Assembly: GCF_034190915.1 (NCBI RefSeq) | Contig: NW_026947493.1 | Span: 41,038,501-41,102,500, forward strand | Direction of reading: 5' to 3' | Source: Cavia porcellus | Lineage: Eukaryota > Chordata > Mammalia > Rodentia > Caviidae | Length of the DNA: 64,000 nt | Part shown: positions 7,319-25,464 of the stretch, piece after piece | Layout of the letters: each line of letters opens with the position of its first letter | How positions within the stretch are numbered: position 1 is the first letter of the stretch | The notes under the pieces: generated by a model | Told to the model about the DNA's origin: nothing | Seen by the model: only the letters and a program-made list of their open reading frames with translations | The model's database searches: none | Program-made: the position numbers and the translations under genes

Positions 7319-9760
7319 TGCCAAGACTGAGACTGCCTAAGGATTGTAAACAATACTATAGGCCAGTACCAATAAACCAGGGGCCACATCAAAGAGGCAG
7401 AAACTTCATATCCCTAATAAATTGAAGGTGTAGGATTTTGTAAAGAGGCTCAAAACCCAAAAGCCAGCTACACCTAGAAGATGTCTCTGAGAAGTAATCA
7501 TTTCCTAAGAGTTCTAAATATTAGCAATAAAGCTACTTGGCATAAGCAATTTGAAAGCATCAATGCAGAAATTTAACTTAAAGAAATAGGAAATAAGAAG
7601 ACACTTAAGCAAGATGTAACTCCAAACCTGCAGTTCACCTAAAACAAAGCCAGATGACAGTGAGGTGGAACAATTTAAAAGCCATTACCTGGATTCTATG
7701 AAATAGTAACAGCAGAAGTTAACAAAGCAGTTGAATGAGGCTTCAGAAAAAAATCAAATCAGAAATAACTTCTCAGAAAACTACAGAGATGGTAACCACA
7801 ATGCAAGACTTGATTAGTGACTCTAAAGCAGATACAGATGAAAAAGTAGAGAAGCTTGTGAAAATGATGGAAACCATAAGTGCTCAACATAAAATAGAAA
7901 TAGAATCCATGAAACAGATTCAAACAGATATCCAGGAGACTAAAAAGTCTATTGAAAAATATATGCAGCAGAATGAGGCAGTGTGAGGACAGAATATCTG
8001 ATATGGAAAACAGCATTGCAGCTAATGATCATCCAAAGAAAGATTTCTTAAGAATAACAAGGCACTTTGAAAAATAGATCCAACAGCTGTTAGGTGATGC
8101 AAAGAAGAACAACATAAGATTGGAGTCAAAGAAAAAGCAGGAGGTAGCACCAATGACAAGAAAAACCTGCTTACAGAAGTAGTGGCAGAATATTTCCTAA
8201 ACATGGAAAAAAGAATTTAAAATACAGATAATTAAGGTATGTAGAACTGCAACTAGCTGTGATAAAAAATCTACAACAATGAATATAACAGTCAAGATTC
8301 CAGAAATTCAACACAAGAACAGAAAGTTAAAGGCTGTTAGAGAAAAGAAACAAATCATCTATAAAGAAAAGTCCATTAGAATCACAGCAGACTTTTCAAT
8401 ACAAACCCACAAGTCAAGGAGAATTATGAGTGAAATATTTAAAGCTCTAAAAGAAAACAACCTCCAACCCAGATTGACGTATACTGCAAACAATACTTCA
8501 TGGGACAGGAAACCAGGAAATAGCAGGAGTAGCAATTCTATTTGCAGACAGAGTAGATTTTAAGCCAAGACTGATCAACAGAGATAAAGAAGGTCACTAC
8601 ATCCTTGTAAAGGGGGAAATTCAAGAGGAAGAGATAATAATCATGACTATATATGCAGCAAATACCAGTGAATGCCATTATATAAAACAAATATTAAAGA
8701 ATACAATTGTAATGGGGGACACCAATACCCTACTGTCACAAATAGAAGATCAAACAGACAGATCAACAAAGAAATATCAAAAACTGAACCAAACTTGAAC
8801 AAGTGGACTTAGCAGATGTCTACAGAGTGTTCCACGCTACAGGGAAATGCACATTCTTCTCAACAGCACACAGAATATTTTCTAAATACTACAAGCTAGC
8901 TCATAGAACATGCCTAAGTAAATTCAAAAGAATTGAAATTATCCCATGAATATTATCAGTGCAATGAAATTGGAAATCAATAAAAAAATGAAACTAGAAA
9001 TTAGTTTCTACCATTAACTAATAATGTCAATACAATATACCAGAACTTACAGCATTCAATGAAGCAGTACCACAAAGGAAATTAATAGTAAATTCTCATT
9101 TCAAAAGAACAGAGTGAGCTACAATACACAAACTAATTGTAAACCTCAACCATCAAGAAAAAGAAGAGCAAGTCAAGTCCAGAGTACATACAAGGGAAGA
9201 AATTAAAAAGATGAGAGCAAAAATTAATGCAGTTGAGACTAAGAAAATATAAAGAATTGATGAATCAAAGAGTTGGTTCATTGGAAAATTAAATAAAATT
9301 GACAAACCATTTTCCAAACTTATCAAGAAAAGGAAAGACTCAAATCCATGCAATTAGGAATGAAAAGGGTGAAATCAAAACAAATCCTGCAGAAACCCAG
9401 AAGATCATCTATACCTACTTTGAAAACTGGTATTCTAGTAAGATGGAATACAGAGAAGAAATGGACAGATTCCCAGAAACATGAATTATCAAAACTGAAT
9501 TAAGAAAACATAAAAATTCTAAATAAACCAATATCAGTGAATGAAATTGAAGATGTAATTAAAAACTCATCAACAAAGAATAATGTATTATTATTGGCTT
9601 GTCAGTTATAATAGATGTATCACCATGATGCAGTGTTAATAATTGGGGAAACTGTGATCAGGGAAGAGAAGGTGTTTATGGGAATTCTGTACGCTATCTG
9701 CTAAATTTTCTGTAAACTGAAATCTGCTTTAAAAAATGAAGACTTACTAAAAATACATTC
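7319..9760 (+). mobile_element. Old L1, plus strand, internally deleted
   Basis: A degenerate L1 in sense orientation. 7319-7730 resembles 5' leader/ORF1 start sequence. 7735-7986 encodes a Lys/Glu-rich coiled-coil-like ORF1 segment. 8279-8510 encodes the ORF1 RRM/C-terminal region, including IPEIQHKNRKLKAVREKKQI, close to the intact ORF1 at 23666-24715. From about 8510 the sequence switches to the ORF2 endonuclease (FADRVDFKPRLINRDKEGHY, then an MGDTNT motif near 8715) and runs through the ORF2 linker to about 9570. It then jumps to an L1M-type 3' UTR (GGGGAAACTGTG ... TTCTGTAAACTGAAATCTG) ending near 9755. Multiple frameshifts and stops are present and the reverse transcriptase domain is missing. 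Confidence 0.8.
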
Positions 9761-22296: not shown

Positions 22297-22311
22297 CTGG
22301 AAAACTTTTTC
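22297..22311. repeat. Target-site duplication, 3' side of half-L1
   Basis: CTGGAAAACTTTTTC, identical to 25450-25464 on the other side of the element (15 of 15 bases). The base outside each copy differs, fixing the length at 15. Confidence 0.95.
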
Positions 22312-22325
22312 TTTTTTTTTTTTTT

Positions 22326-23665
22326 AATTTTTATTTAAGGAGAAAAGAAAAGAAAGAAAAAAAAACAGTGAAGGGGTACAAGTTATACAGATTTACAGAA
22401 TAAAAAAATGCGCAGTAGGAAATCACTAGTTAATGGATTACATATTGCCATCTTAGAAATAATTGTTCAAGTCACAAAATTAAAGCTTGTAGAGTGGACA
22501 TTCCAACAATGATACTGCAGACAGTTCTGTTCAATGATCCAATAAAACTCTGTGATATCATTTTCTATCTCATACATTTAAATATACATGCAGTTATATA
22601 GTTTAGAGCACTTTCTTTTCCTCTCTTTTGTACAGTGACTATTACACATTTTGGGTTTCATTGCTCCCACGGTTCTTGTTGCTTTTTTGGAAGAGAGTAA
22701 AACCAAATGTGACATAACAGAACGAATCGGTCAAGTCAAAAGGGTGGACATAATAGATAATATAAAAACATAATACAAGGTGATCAACAATGGTTACCAT
22801 AATGCCTCCCGCTATTTCTAATAGAATTGCCTATATCATTAGTTGTAATACAATTGAACAAAACCGTAAAGAATAAAACCGACAAAACCAAAACATTGGA
22901 GATATTGTAGGTCTTCAAAAGTAGATAAAAGTCAACGAGAATGGGCGTTATAATGAATCTCATTATCTTCTCAGCTGATGCCTAAACTTTCGAACCTGAT
23001 ACTATCCAGCAAAACAGAATAGAGGAACCTCAGTCAAAAACCAGATGGTGAGAGTAACACAGGGCTTCAAATCGAGATAATAGAAAGTCAAAGTGGGTTA
23101 CTATATTATATCCTGCTATATTTTTCCCTTTAATTAAATGGATAAAAATAAAAAAGTAAATAATGGAGTGGAGATTGAGAAAAAAAGAGGGCATAACAGC
23201 GAAACAGGGCAGATCAAAACATAACCATTTAAGCAGAATAGTGTTTCACCACCAGATAATCCTGACCCAAAAATAGTTACCATATTGACTCCCTCCCTGA
23301 AGTCCTTGAGTACAACTTCATATACTGTAGCATTAAGTATATCAAAACAATGTAAATCCATTTAAGAGAATGACAGCATTATAGAGTATTTAGAATCGAC
23401 TAACAGAAAAAGAAGAATGGTCTCTGTATAATCTCCTTGTCTTTAAAAGGTTTTTTCTTATACTATCGTACTTAACAAAATCCAATAAGATACAACCTGT
23501 TTAGACCATTGGAGACAGAAGAACAAAAGCTAGATGAGACTTCAAAACAAGATGGTACTAAATCAGCATTACCTATTAAGATGTCATTTTCTCCAAAAAA
23601 AGCTGTTCCTATCATCCAATCTTCTCTGTCTCATTTCTGTTGAGCTCTTTTTCTGTCAGTAGCTG
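22326..23665 (-). other. ORF2-less 3' region of the half-L1
   Basis: About 1.34 kb between the ORF1 stop and the poly(A) tail, AT-rich, with only short frames (largest 75 codons at 23134-23361, hydrophobic, no motif). The last ~150 nt in sense resemble the end of the L1 at 40.62-40.78 kb: both have an AACAATATG/GGCAATATG stretch, then an AATCTGT..TAACT segment, then CCTTAAA(A)TAAAA(A)TTAAAA before the tail. This suggests a shared 3' tail, which an L1 reverse transcriptase could use. This is a visual comparison, not an alignment. Confidence 0.7.
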
Positions 23666-24715
23666 TCAGTTTGTCTTCTTCATTTTGTTCTCTGCTCCAT
23701 TCGTTGTGGCCTCCCCGCCCCTATTTCTGGGTTCTTTGTATTTTTCTTTTTTTAGAATATCCTGCAATACTTTCTGTAGGGTTGAATTGGTGGTTGCAAA
23801 TTCCCCCAGTTCCTCTTTATCCTGGAAGCACCTCGTTTTTCCATCAATTTCCAGGGACAGTTGTGCAGGATATCTCAATCTTGGCTGTAGATTATTATCT
23901 TTCAAAGCTTGAATTATTTCTCCCCATGCTCTTCGTGATTTGATGGTTTGTGAAGAGAAATCTGCTGTAATTCTGATGGGTCTTCCCTTGTAAGTGATCT
24001 GTTTCTTGTCTCTTACAGCTTTTAATATTCTGTTCTTGTATTGAATTTCTGGAATTTTTATTATTACATGCCTGGGTGTTTCTCTGTTAGGGTTGTAGGT
24101 AGCTGGGCTCCTGTATGCCTCATACATTTGAGTATCTTTACCTTTTGCTAAATTAGGAAAATTCTCCTGGATTATTTCTGTGAGTAGCTTTTGTAGTTCA
24201 CTTGTTTGTGTCCCTACTTCTTCTTTTATGTTCTTAATCCTTAAGTTATGGCTCCTCTTATCATCTTCTTGTCTTTGTATTATTGCTGTGTGTTTCTTTG
24301 TTATTTTTAAGAAGTTTTTCATTTCATTCTCCCATGTTTCAAGTCTGCCCTCCAATTCAGATAGTCTGTCCTTAGTTTCTTTCAAGCTGTTATGCCAGTC
24401 TTGGGTAGACTTCTTAATTTCTTGATAGTCCCTTTGCACCTGCTTCACATACTCAATGCTTTCTCTGTTTTCTCCATCAAGCAATTCTCCCCTCTTTTTC
24501 TGTTCTTCCATTCCACCATCTGCTTTTTCCTGGGTGGTGCTTAGCATTTCTCTAACTATTCTGCATACTTCTAGCTTCAGGTCATTGATAACTTCATTCC
24601 TGAATTGGTCTATGAGGCTCTCTAAATGGCGCTTAATGTATATTGGTGCAGTGTCCACTGCCTGATTCTCAGGATTGGGGGTCGAGGAGCCTTTTTTGTT
24701 GCTTCCCTTCCCCAT
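23666..24715 (-). CDS. Intact L1-type ORF1 protein
   Basis: 349 codons from ATG at 24715, close to the usual ~340-370 residues of L1 ORF1p, the RNA-binding trimeric nucleic-acid chaperone of the retrotransposon particle. Regions: basic disordered N-terminus (residues 1-20, MGKGSNKKGS...); charged heptad-rich coiled coil (about 30-150); RRM (about 155-250) starting HNLRIKNIKEE and containing ENFPNLAKGKDTQ and TPRHVIIKIPEI; C-terminal domain (about 251-325) with ADFSSQTIKSRRAWGEI and LQPRLRYPAQLSLEIDGKTR; a basic tail. Residues corresponding to human ORF1p N157, R159, R261 and Y282, important for RNA binding, are all present, at the same numbers in this protein. No frameshift or stop. The ORF is antisense to the plus strand and in the same sense as CYP7B1. 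Confidence 0.95.
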   Translation of the reverse strand: MGKGSNKKGSSTPNPENQAVDTAPIYIKRHLESLIDQFRNEVINDLKLEVCRIVREMLSTTQEKADGGMEEQKKRGELLDGENRESIEYVKQVQRDYQEIKKSTQDWHNSLKETKDRLSELEGRLETWENEMKNFLKITKKHTAIIQRQEDDKRSHNLRIKNIKEEVGTQTSELQKLLTEIIQENFPNLAKGKDTQMYEAYRSPATYNPNRETPRHVIIKIPEIQYKNRILKAVRDKKQITYKGRPIRITADFSSQTIKSRRAWGEIIQALKDNNLQPRLRYPAQLSLEIDGKTRCFQDKEELGEFATTNSTLQKVLQDILKKEKYKEPRNRGGEATTNGAENKMKKTN

Positions 24716-25449
24716 ATTTTCTGTTCCTTATAAAATGTAATCTTACACAGGAGGCCCGGCTTCCCTGCCTGTCAGCCACAGCTTGATCAAATTGCGCTGG
24801 CTAGTTGTTCCCGCTCACCGCTGCGCCCCAGGGAGTTGCGGAGGAGGCAGCCTACGCGGGAGTCGGTCGCTCCTCCGGGCCACCGTCAGGCTCTGGGATC
24901 TGGGTTAGGCCAGCCTAGGGAGTCCGCCAGCAGCATCCCTCCGGTCAGGCACCTTTCACCAATCCCGTCCGAGAGGGAAACGTGCGGCTGCAGTTGCCAC
25001 CGCGCCCTGCTCTTACAGGACTGCCCGCGCCCAGAAAAACCTCCACTGGAGTCAACCTGCGGTAGGGAGTCAGTTCCTCGCTCACCTCGCCACCAGTCAG
25101 CCTTCCTCCCTGTCCGTCGCGTTTCCGACTCCGTTCGCAGACTCCCGTTCCCAAGCCTCTGCGTGTCTCTCCCGCTATGGAGGCAGCCGGCCGCCGGGCG
25201 GCGGGAAATCCAAACCGCGGTTTCCTATGGCGCGGAGTCGAGCCTCCACACCGAGATTTTTCTGTTCCTATTTTAGCGCCAGGACTGTATTCCAAGTTGG
25301 ATTCTCTCAGCCCAGTTCGTTCCTGAGTCAGCAGAGCATATCTCTACTGGTTCGTATCTCCTTAGTCCGCATCATTCCTGGCCTCTGAGCCGAGCCTTTA
25401 GAGAGCGTTCAGTAGTTGCTGTTGTCTGTCCGCCATGTTCTCCAACTGG
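24716..25449 (-). promoter_or_regulatory. CpG-rich 5' UTR / internal promoter of the half-L1
   Basis: About 734 bp upstream of ORF1, strikingly GC- and CpG-rich (especially 24770-25280) in an otherwise AT-rich intron. Autonomous L1-type elements carry their promoter here. An ATGGCGG core sits at positions +14 to +20 of the element (25436-25430), like the YY1 site at the start of human L1 that positions transcription initiation. Long stop-free frames occur on both strands (116 codons sense at 25295-24945; 146 codons antisense at 24836-25276). Neither opens with ATG (both with TTG), so they may only reflect base composition. Confidence 0.75.
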
Positions 25450-25464
25450 CTGGAAAACTTTTTC
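25450..25464. repeat. Target-site duplication, 5' side of half-L1
   Basis: CTGGAAAACTTTTTC, identical to 22297-22311. The T-rich strand TTTTT/CATA fits the loose L1 endonuclease preference for TTTT/A-like sites. Confidence 0.95.

What the first reader, a model, noticed from the sequence alone, without database searches (positions are those of the whole stretch)
22312..25449. Structurally complete, apparently young half-L1 (HAL1-like) element in CYP7B1 intron 1
Seen: a perfect 15-bp duplication (CTGGAAAACTTTTTC), a 5' end with promoter-like sequence, an intact 349-codon ORF1, no readable ORF2, a ~1.34-kb 3' region, AATAAA and a poly(A) tail. Known: HAL1 elements are L1 derivatives that keep only ORF1. 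Inference: this is a full-length, recently inserted member of an ORF1-only family in this rodent lineage, mobilised in trans by L1 ORF2 protein. If so, it is a sizeable non-autonomous family that still keeps its own RNA-chaperone gene.
Basis: partly seen in the sequence, partly recalled or inferred. Interest (0 to 1): 0.9.

Follow-up and report, generated by a model that had tools for sequence, protein, structure and literature searches.

The report
Young guinea-pig half-LINE-1 jumping-gene family
This stretch of a guinea-pig chromosome holds a complete copy of a jumping-gene family that keeps only one of the two LINE-1 genes, has many near-identical copies in the genome, and likely borrows its copying enzyme from intact LINE-1 elements; three related copies begin with what look like exons of one host gene.

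Summary
Confirmed. 22312-25449 (minus strand) is a full-length HAL1-type element: 15-bp target duplication, CpG-rich 5' region, intact 349-codon L1 ORF1, 1.35-kb 3' region without ORF2, AATAAA, poly(A). The genome is guinea pig. Two searches (40 scored of 2,325 and 40 of 2,889 candidates) gave 75 loci at 97-100%, window copy included. In 20 copies read with flanks the ORF1-to-3'-region junction is kept and no ORF2 is present; 17 share the 5' end; 19 of 21 elements have private 12-18-nt duplications at TT/AAAA-like targets; ORF1 is unbroken in 16 of 20. ORF1 looks conserved along the lineage (omega about 0.2, weaker by another yardstick). Open 1291-codon reverse-transcriptase frames exist in the genome, but the ORF1 beside one of them is only 55% identical, so this is an old separate lineage, not a recent L1 deletion. 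Young guinea-pig HAL1 families were listed in 2011, so the kind is known. New to me: three HAL1 insertions from two families begin with the same apparent first exon of a multi-copy host gene; in two, sequence from behind a splice acceptor 13-47 kb downstream of that exon follows, which suggests repeated launch from that gene's promoter.

The parts
25450..25464 (-). 5' target site duplication
   Evidence: exact 15-bp repeat
25428..25439 (-). AACATGGCGGAC at element position 11-22, YY1-like site near the start (motif recalled; a YY1 site in the HAL1b 5'UTR is mentioned in a passage of PMC7586669)
24716..25449 (-). 5' untranslated region, CpG rich, likely promoter; 5' end shared by 17 of 20 other copies read
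25127..25235 (-). unit present once here and duplicated (122-125 nt extra) in 5 of 20 aligned elements
23666..24715 (-). intact L1-type ORF1, 349 codons
22312..23665 (-). 3' region without ORF2; bases 22330-23665 are covered whole by all 40 scored loci at 98-100%
22330..22335 (-). AATAAA polyadenylation signal
22312..22325 (-). poly(A) tail
22297..22311 (-). 3' target site duplication
   Evidence: exact 15-bp repeat

Best explanation
The element at 22312-25449 is a full-length copy of a HAL1-type (L1-derived, ORF1-only) retrotransposon family with many near-identical copies in the guinea-pig genome; it is likely transcribed from its own CpG-rich 5' region and predicted to be copied into new sites in trans by the ORF2 protein of intact L1 elements. 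Shown: shared 5' and 3' ends, one shared junction after ORF1, no ORF2, private target duplications, poly(A), unbroken ORF1 in most copies read, older copies with the same layout, and a genome with many open reverse-transcriptase frames of ORF2 size. Inferred: that ORF1 is kept because its protein packages its own RNA and makes it a better customer of L1 ORF2p; that the family may still move. A side mechanism is also inferred: several HAL1 insertions started as transcripts from a multi-copy host gene's promoter, whose first exon was cis-spliced into a HAL1 lying downstream in that gene.
For: Family: 3' region, 2,325 first-look candidates, 40 scored, all 40 over 1-1336 at 98-100%; 5' UTR, 2,889 candidates, 40 scored at 97-100%; 75 distinct loci, window included, 5 in both lists. 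Anatomy: 17 of 20 other copies start at element position 6-8, three are 5' truncated (L033, L041, L043), all 20 run through the same junction. Direct repeats of 12-18 nt in 19 of 21 elements; at 18 sites (one, L034, on a doubtful 8-nt repeat) the first two bases are A in 14 and 16 and the base before is T in 12. ORF1 unbroken in 16 of 20 elements incl. the window and in 25 of 30 loci L001-L030, an overlapping set. Youth: mean pairwise difference 1.1% in the 3' region, closest pair 0.26% overall. Selection: 35 synonymous / 31 nonsynonymous young-fixed changes against two old copies (p 2.9e-9 against neutrality); 13/11 since the split from L057, p 2e-4, against 1/9 private to L057, Fisher p 0.024. 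Two old copies at about 76% are colinear across the junction. Partner: 28 of 150 scored RVT_1 rows lie in open frames of 1291 aa without a stop.
Against: Copies read were those most like the window copy, so youth and intactness are biased upward. Constraint is weaker with another yardstick: against L057, dN is 0.044 but the 3' region differs by only 6.0% while dS is 0.125, so synonymous sites may be fast or the 3' region itself constrained. The old copies' private changes together did not differ significantly from the young lineage (Fisher p 0.09), and O_L049 alone shows omega 0.25. Within the young set pooled pN/pS is 0.57. No RNA, protein or polymorphism data. Only part of one partner L1's ORF1 was read; no L1 3' end or 5' UTR was compared, and the 1291-aa frames were called L1 by size and by that one neighbour.
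Confidence: 0.9

Rival explanations
1. A one-off internally deleted L1 that lost ORF2 during or after insertion.
For: L1 ORF1 domains and an L1-like target site.
Against: The same junction is in all 20 copies read with flanks, in one further locus, with four more holding the 3' region at the matching distance, and in two copies at about 76% identity. The ORF1 beside an open ORF2-size frame is 55% identical over 147 aa.
Confidence: 0.02
2. A recently formed internal-deletion family of the current guinea-pig L1, with ORF1 simply carried along as unselected cargo.
For: Young copies; pooled pairwise pN/pS within the young set is 0.57; constraint is weaker when the 3' region is the yardstick.
Against: ORF1 far from the one sampled L1's ORF1; older copies of the same layout; lineage omega about 0.21-0.22.
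Confidence: 0.08
3. For the host-exon chimaeras: RNA-level trans-splicing or template switching joined host exons to HAL1 RNA, rather than cis-splicing from a HAL1 inside the host gene.
For: No HAL1 is present at the four C11 junction sites read (L060, L061, L063, L064); in L031 the element is joined directly to the exon end.
Against: In L056 and L057 the 85-87 nt between exon 1 and HAL1 lie on C11, on the same strand and 13.6-47 kb downstream of exon-1 copies, directly behind a splice acceptor, as expected if HAL1 had been inserted there.
Confidence: 0.2

Closest known systems
HAL1 families of guinea pig (HAL1-1E/G/H_Cpo, HAL1-3D_Cpo), listed in PMC3183009 (passage seen)
   Same: Same species, same named kind; copies under 1% from consensus reported (37, 50, 106 and 54).
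   Different: Repbase sequences were not at hand, so which name fits the window copy is not settled; counted in a 2.66-Gb assembly.
HAL1/HAL1b of other mammals (PMC5753468, PMC5322556, PMC7586669, passages seen)
   Same: L1 derivative with ORF1 only, poly(A), target duplications; YY1 site in the HAL1b 5'UTR.
   Different: PMC5753468 cites HAL1s as arising several times independently; this lineage is young and keeps unbroken ORF1 in most copies read.
Guinea-pig L1 (L1-1C/D_Cpo named in PMC3183009; open ORF2-size frames)
   Same: ORF1 domain kind.
   Different: Has ORF2; the one ORF1 sampled is 55% identical over 147 aa.
SINEs such as mouse B1 or human Alu (recalled)
   Same: Depend on L1 ORF2p in trans.
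   Different: No protein, Pol III, short; HAL1 keeps its own ORF1.

Membership tests
HAL1 (half-L1) | ORF1 of L1 type | tested here: met
   Pfam L1 RBD and dsRBD; solved LINE-1 ORF1p chains by sequence, best E 6e-44
HAL1 (half-L1) | no ORF2 in the family | tested here: met
   20 of 20 copies with flanks; 5 of 5 further loci, one across the junction and four by distance
HAL1 (half-L1) | multiple copies with target duplications and poly(A) | tested here: met
   duplications in 19 of 21 elements, A-rich tails seen
HAL1 (half-L1) | mobilised by L1 ORF2p in trans | not testable with these tools
   only indirect: TT/AAAA-like target, open ORF2-size frames in the genome
A named Repbase guinea-pig HAL1 subfamily | sequence match to a HAL1-1 or HAL1-3 _Cpo consensus | not testable with these tools
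   Repbase not held; Bao and Jurka 2010 not held
Autonomous L1 | ORF2 with endonuclease and reverse transcriptase | tested here: not met
   longest open stretch after ORF1 is 75 codons

The most novel reading that the evidence does not exclude
One multi-copy gene on guinea-pig contig C11 is a recurrent launch pad for ORF1-only retrotransposons: HAL1s of two families that fell into its introns were transcribed from its CpG-island promoter, spliced to its first exon and retrotransposed as host-exon/HAL1 chimaeras at least three times, so an ORF1-only lineage has survived by its own conserved ORF1 together with a borrowed enzyme and, at times, a borrowed promoter.
Probability: 0.55. Interest if true: 0.7.

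Novelty: new member of a known kind. Interest (0 to 1): 0.5.

Why it matters
Why a parasite that borrows ORF2p should keep its own ORF1 is an open question about what ORF1p does and whether it acts in cis. A lineage with unbroken ORF1, recent copies and a likely partner L1 whose ORF1 is far diverged makes that testable in one species. The host-exon chimaeras suggest how such RNAs can be made from a host promoter.

Tried and rejected
Rejected: one-off deletion (shared junction). Considered that loci best matched by the 5' UTR but absent from the 3'-region list might be L1s with ORF2; five stretches read (of 35 such loci) were HAL1 sequence at 99%, so the lists likely differ because only 40 candidates are scored. 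Considered plain 5' transduction of genomic flank for L031; the extension ends exactly where four C11 copies go on with GTAGG, so splicing fits better. Viral and bacterial collections gave no relatives with six peptide patterns; Rfam at gathering thresholds gave nothing in the window. The L031 junction has no located acceptor; L032 shares only its five odd 5' bases.

Full report
The 15-bp duplication, the 349-codon ORF1, the absence of a readable ORF2, AATAAA and the A tail are in the sequence. The element runs on the minus strand from 25449 to 22312. Its first 600 bases are CpG rich while the rest of the window is CpG poor.

Source. The two best protein relatives are named as Cavia porcellus proteins and lie on contigs whose lengths equal C2 and C6 of the window's own assembly, so the window is guinea pig. 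The names given to those proteins (JAZF1 and ZNHIT3 isoforms) are most likely gene-model artefacts; they cover 100% and 94% of the ORF1 query.

Family. The 3' region gave 2,325 first-look candidates, of which 40 were scored; all 40 cover it whole at 98-100% (one further row is a 43-base piece). The 5' UTR gave 2,889 candidates, 40 scored, at 97-100% over at least 727 of 734 bases. The lists share 5 loci and make 75 in all, window included. Seventeen of 20 start at element position 6-8; L033 starts at 1765, L043 at 27 and L041 inside an extra 5' unit. All 20 pass through the junction after ORF1. Direct repeats of 12-18 nt flank 19 of 21 elements including the window copy; for L033 none was found and for L034 only a doubtful 8-mer. 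The target matrix from 18 sites is TT/AAAA-like. Between target duplication and the common start there are a few to about ten bases that differ between copies. Five of 20 aligned elements carry a 122-125-nt tandem copy of a 5' UTR unit, recalling the monomers of mouse L1 promoters (recalled). Of the 35 loci found only by the 5' UTR, five short stretches were read: one spans the junction and four hold the 3' region at the distance expected without ORF2, all at 99%.

Age and ORF1. Twenty elements (L033 dropped) differ by 1.1% on average in the 3' region and 1.3% in ORF1; the 5' UTR value is 4.2%, probably inflated by the repeat unit. The closest pair differs by 0.26%. With a recalled rodent rate of 2-3 per billion years this suggests roughly two to three million years for the set; these copies were picked for likeness to the window copy. 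ORF1 is unbroken in 16 of 20. Two young copies lie inside older HAL1s that keep the same layout at about 76% as far as the stretches reach. Changes fixed in the young copies relative to both old ones are 35 synonymous and 31 nonsynonymous, omega about 0.22, with 75 positions that vary among the young copies left out (p 2.9e-9). Changes private to the old copies are 13/27 plus 3 stop states, and 16/16; the contrast is not significant (Fisher 0.09). Since the split from L057, which is 94% alike in ORF1 and 3' region and 83% in the 5' UTR, the count is 13/11 on the young lineage and 1/9 on L057 (Fisher 0.024). Against this, the 3' region of L057 differs by only 6.0% where dS is 0.125, so synonymous sites may not be a clean yardstick, and pooled pN/pS within the young set is 0.57.

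Partner. RVT_1 in the own genome: 53,092 first-look candidates, 150 scored; 28 rows lie in open frames of 1291 aa without a stop. I take them for L1 ORF2 by their size and by one neighbour: a 451-base stretch upstream of one of them reads as L1 ORF1 without stops, 55% identical over 147 aa to the window ORF1 and 96.7% over 150 aa to protein P0005. The HAL1 ORF1 is therefore a separate lineage from that L1. Trans-mobilisation is inferred from these facts, not shown.

Host-exon chimaeras. L031, nearest to the window copy of the 19 compared (0.55%), has about 195 GC-rich bases between its 5' duplication and the element. That stretch matches 9 places: four on C11, where it is followed by GTAGG in all four and the surroundings are 92-97% duplicates in the copies compared; L031 itself; and two more elements. 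L057 on C4 is a HAL1 of this family (90% over its length), with a 14-bp duplication. L056 on C3 is a second ORF1-only family: 354-codon ORF1, 51% identical, no ORF of 100 aa between ORF1 and its tail, own 16-bp duplication. The remaining two matches are partial (55 and 116 bases) and were not followed. In L057 the exon is followed by about 87 nt found at C11:61793292-61793378, same strand, 13.6 kb downstream of an exon-1 copy, behind TTTTCAG. A further copy on C22 has the same 87 nt and HAL1 start but another upstream sequence, joined at the same base. In L056 the exon is followed by 85 nt found at seven C11 places at 94-100% and one at 82%; three of them lie 37-47 kb downstream of exon-1 copies on the same strand, the others have no exon-1 match paired with them. 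In the three read it lies behind a good acceptor, and the sequence just before the element start reads as a target duplication, AAAGTAAGACCTAAC. The four C11 sites read are empty of HAL1 at the junction, so the source insertions themselves are not in hand. Reading: HAL1s lay in copies of this gene, were transcribed from its promoter, cis-spliced to exon 1 and retrotransposed. The gene was not identified, and that the exon is its first is inferred from its CpG-rich make-up and the donor site.

Known or new. A passage of PMC3183009 lists guinea-pig HAL1-1E, 1G, 1H and HAL1-3D with copies under 1% from consensus, so young HAL1s in this species are on record. PMC5322556, PMC5753468, PMC4161310 and PMC7586669 were seen in passages only; Bao and Jurka 2010 is known here only through their citations. 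Searches for HAL1 with transduction, and for spliced LINE-1 transductions, showed no title on host-exon HAL1 chimaeras in their listings of three papers each; those papers were not read for this, apart from HAL1 passages of PMC7586669, and most subscription papers are not held.

Noticed in passing
window 7750-9600 (+): A decayed true L1: ORF1 remnant (41% aa over 179 residues to the window ORF1) followed by sequence that by eye reads as ORF2 endonuclease.
   Followed up: partly
L056 214-4206 (C3): A second ORF1-only family with intact 354-codon ORF1, 51% identical to the window ORF1, with two apparent host-gene segments at its 5' end.
   Followed up: yes
L057, L065, L064 (C4, C22, C11): Two HAL1 copies share an 87-nt host segment but have different sequences joined upstream at the same splice acceptor, as if from alternative first exons.
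   Followed up: partly
G000 C17:45914998-45950164: Seven reverse transcriptase matches at about 5.73-kb spacing with equal scores, likely a tandem array of an L1 unit.
   Followed up: no
L062 (C3:15701980-15702230): A second-family copy whose 5' end shares about the last 12 host bases seen in L056, perhaps a 5'-truncated sibling of that chimaera.
   Followed up: partly
element 3' region, L057: The non-coding 3' region differs less from L057 than synonymous ORF1 sites do, which may mean that it is constrained.
   Followed up: no
P0001, P0002: ORF1 proteins annotated as isoforms of guinea-pig JAZF1 and ZNHIT3, likely gene-model artefacts or read-through transcripts.
   Followed up: no
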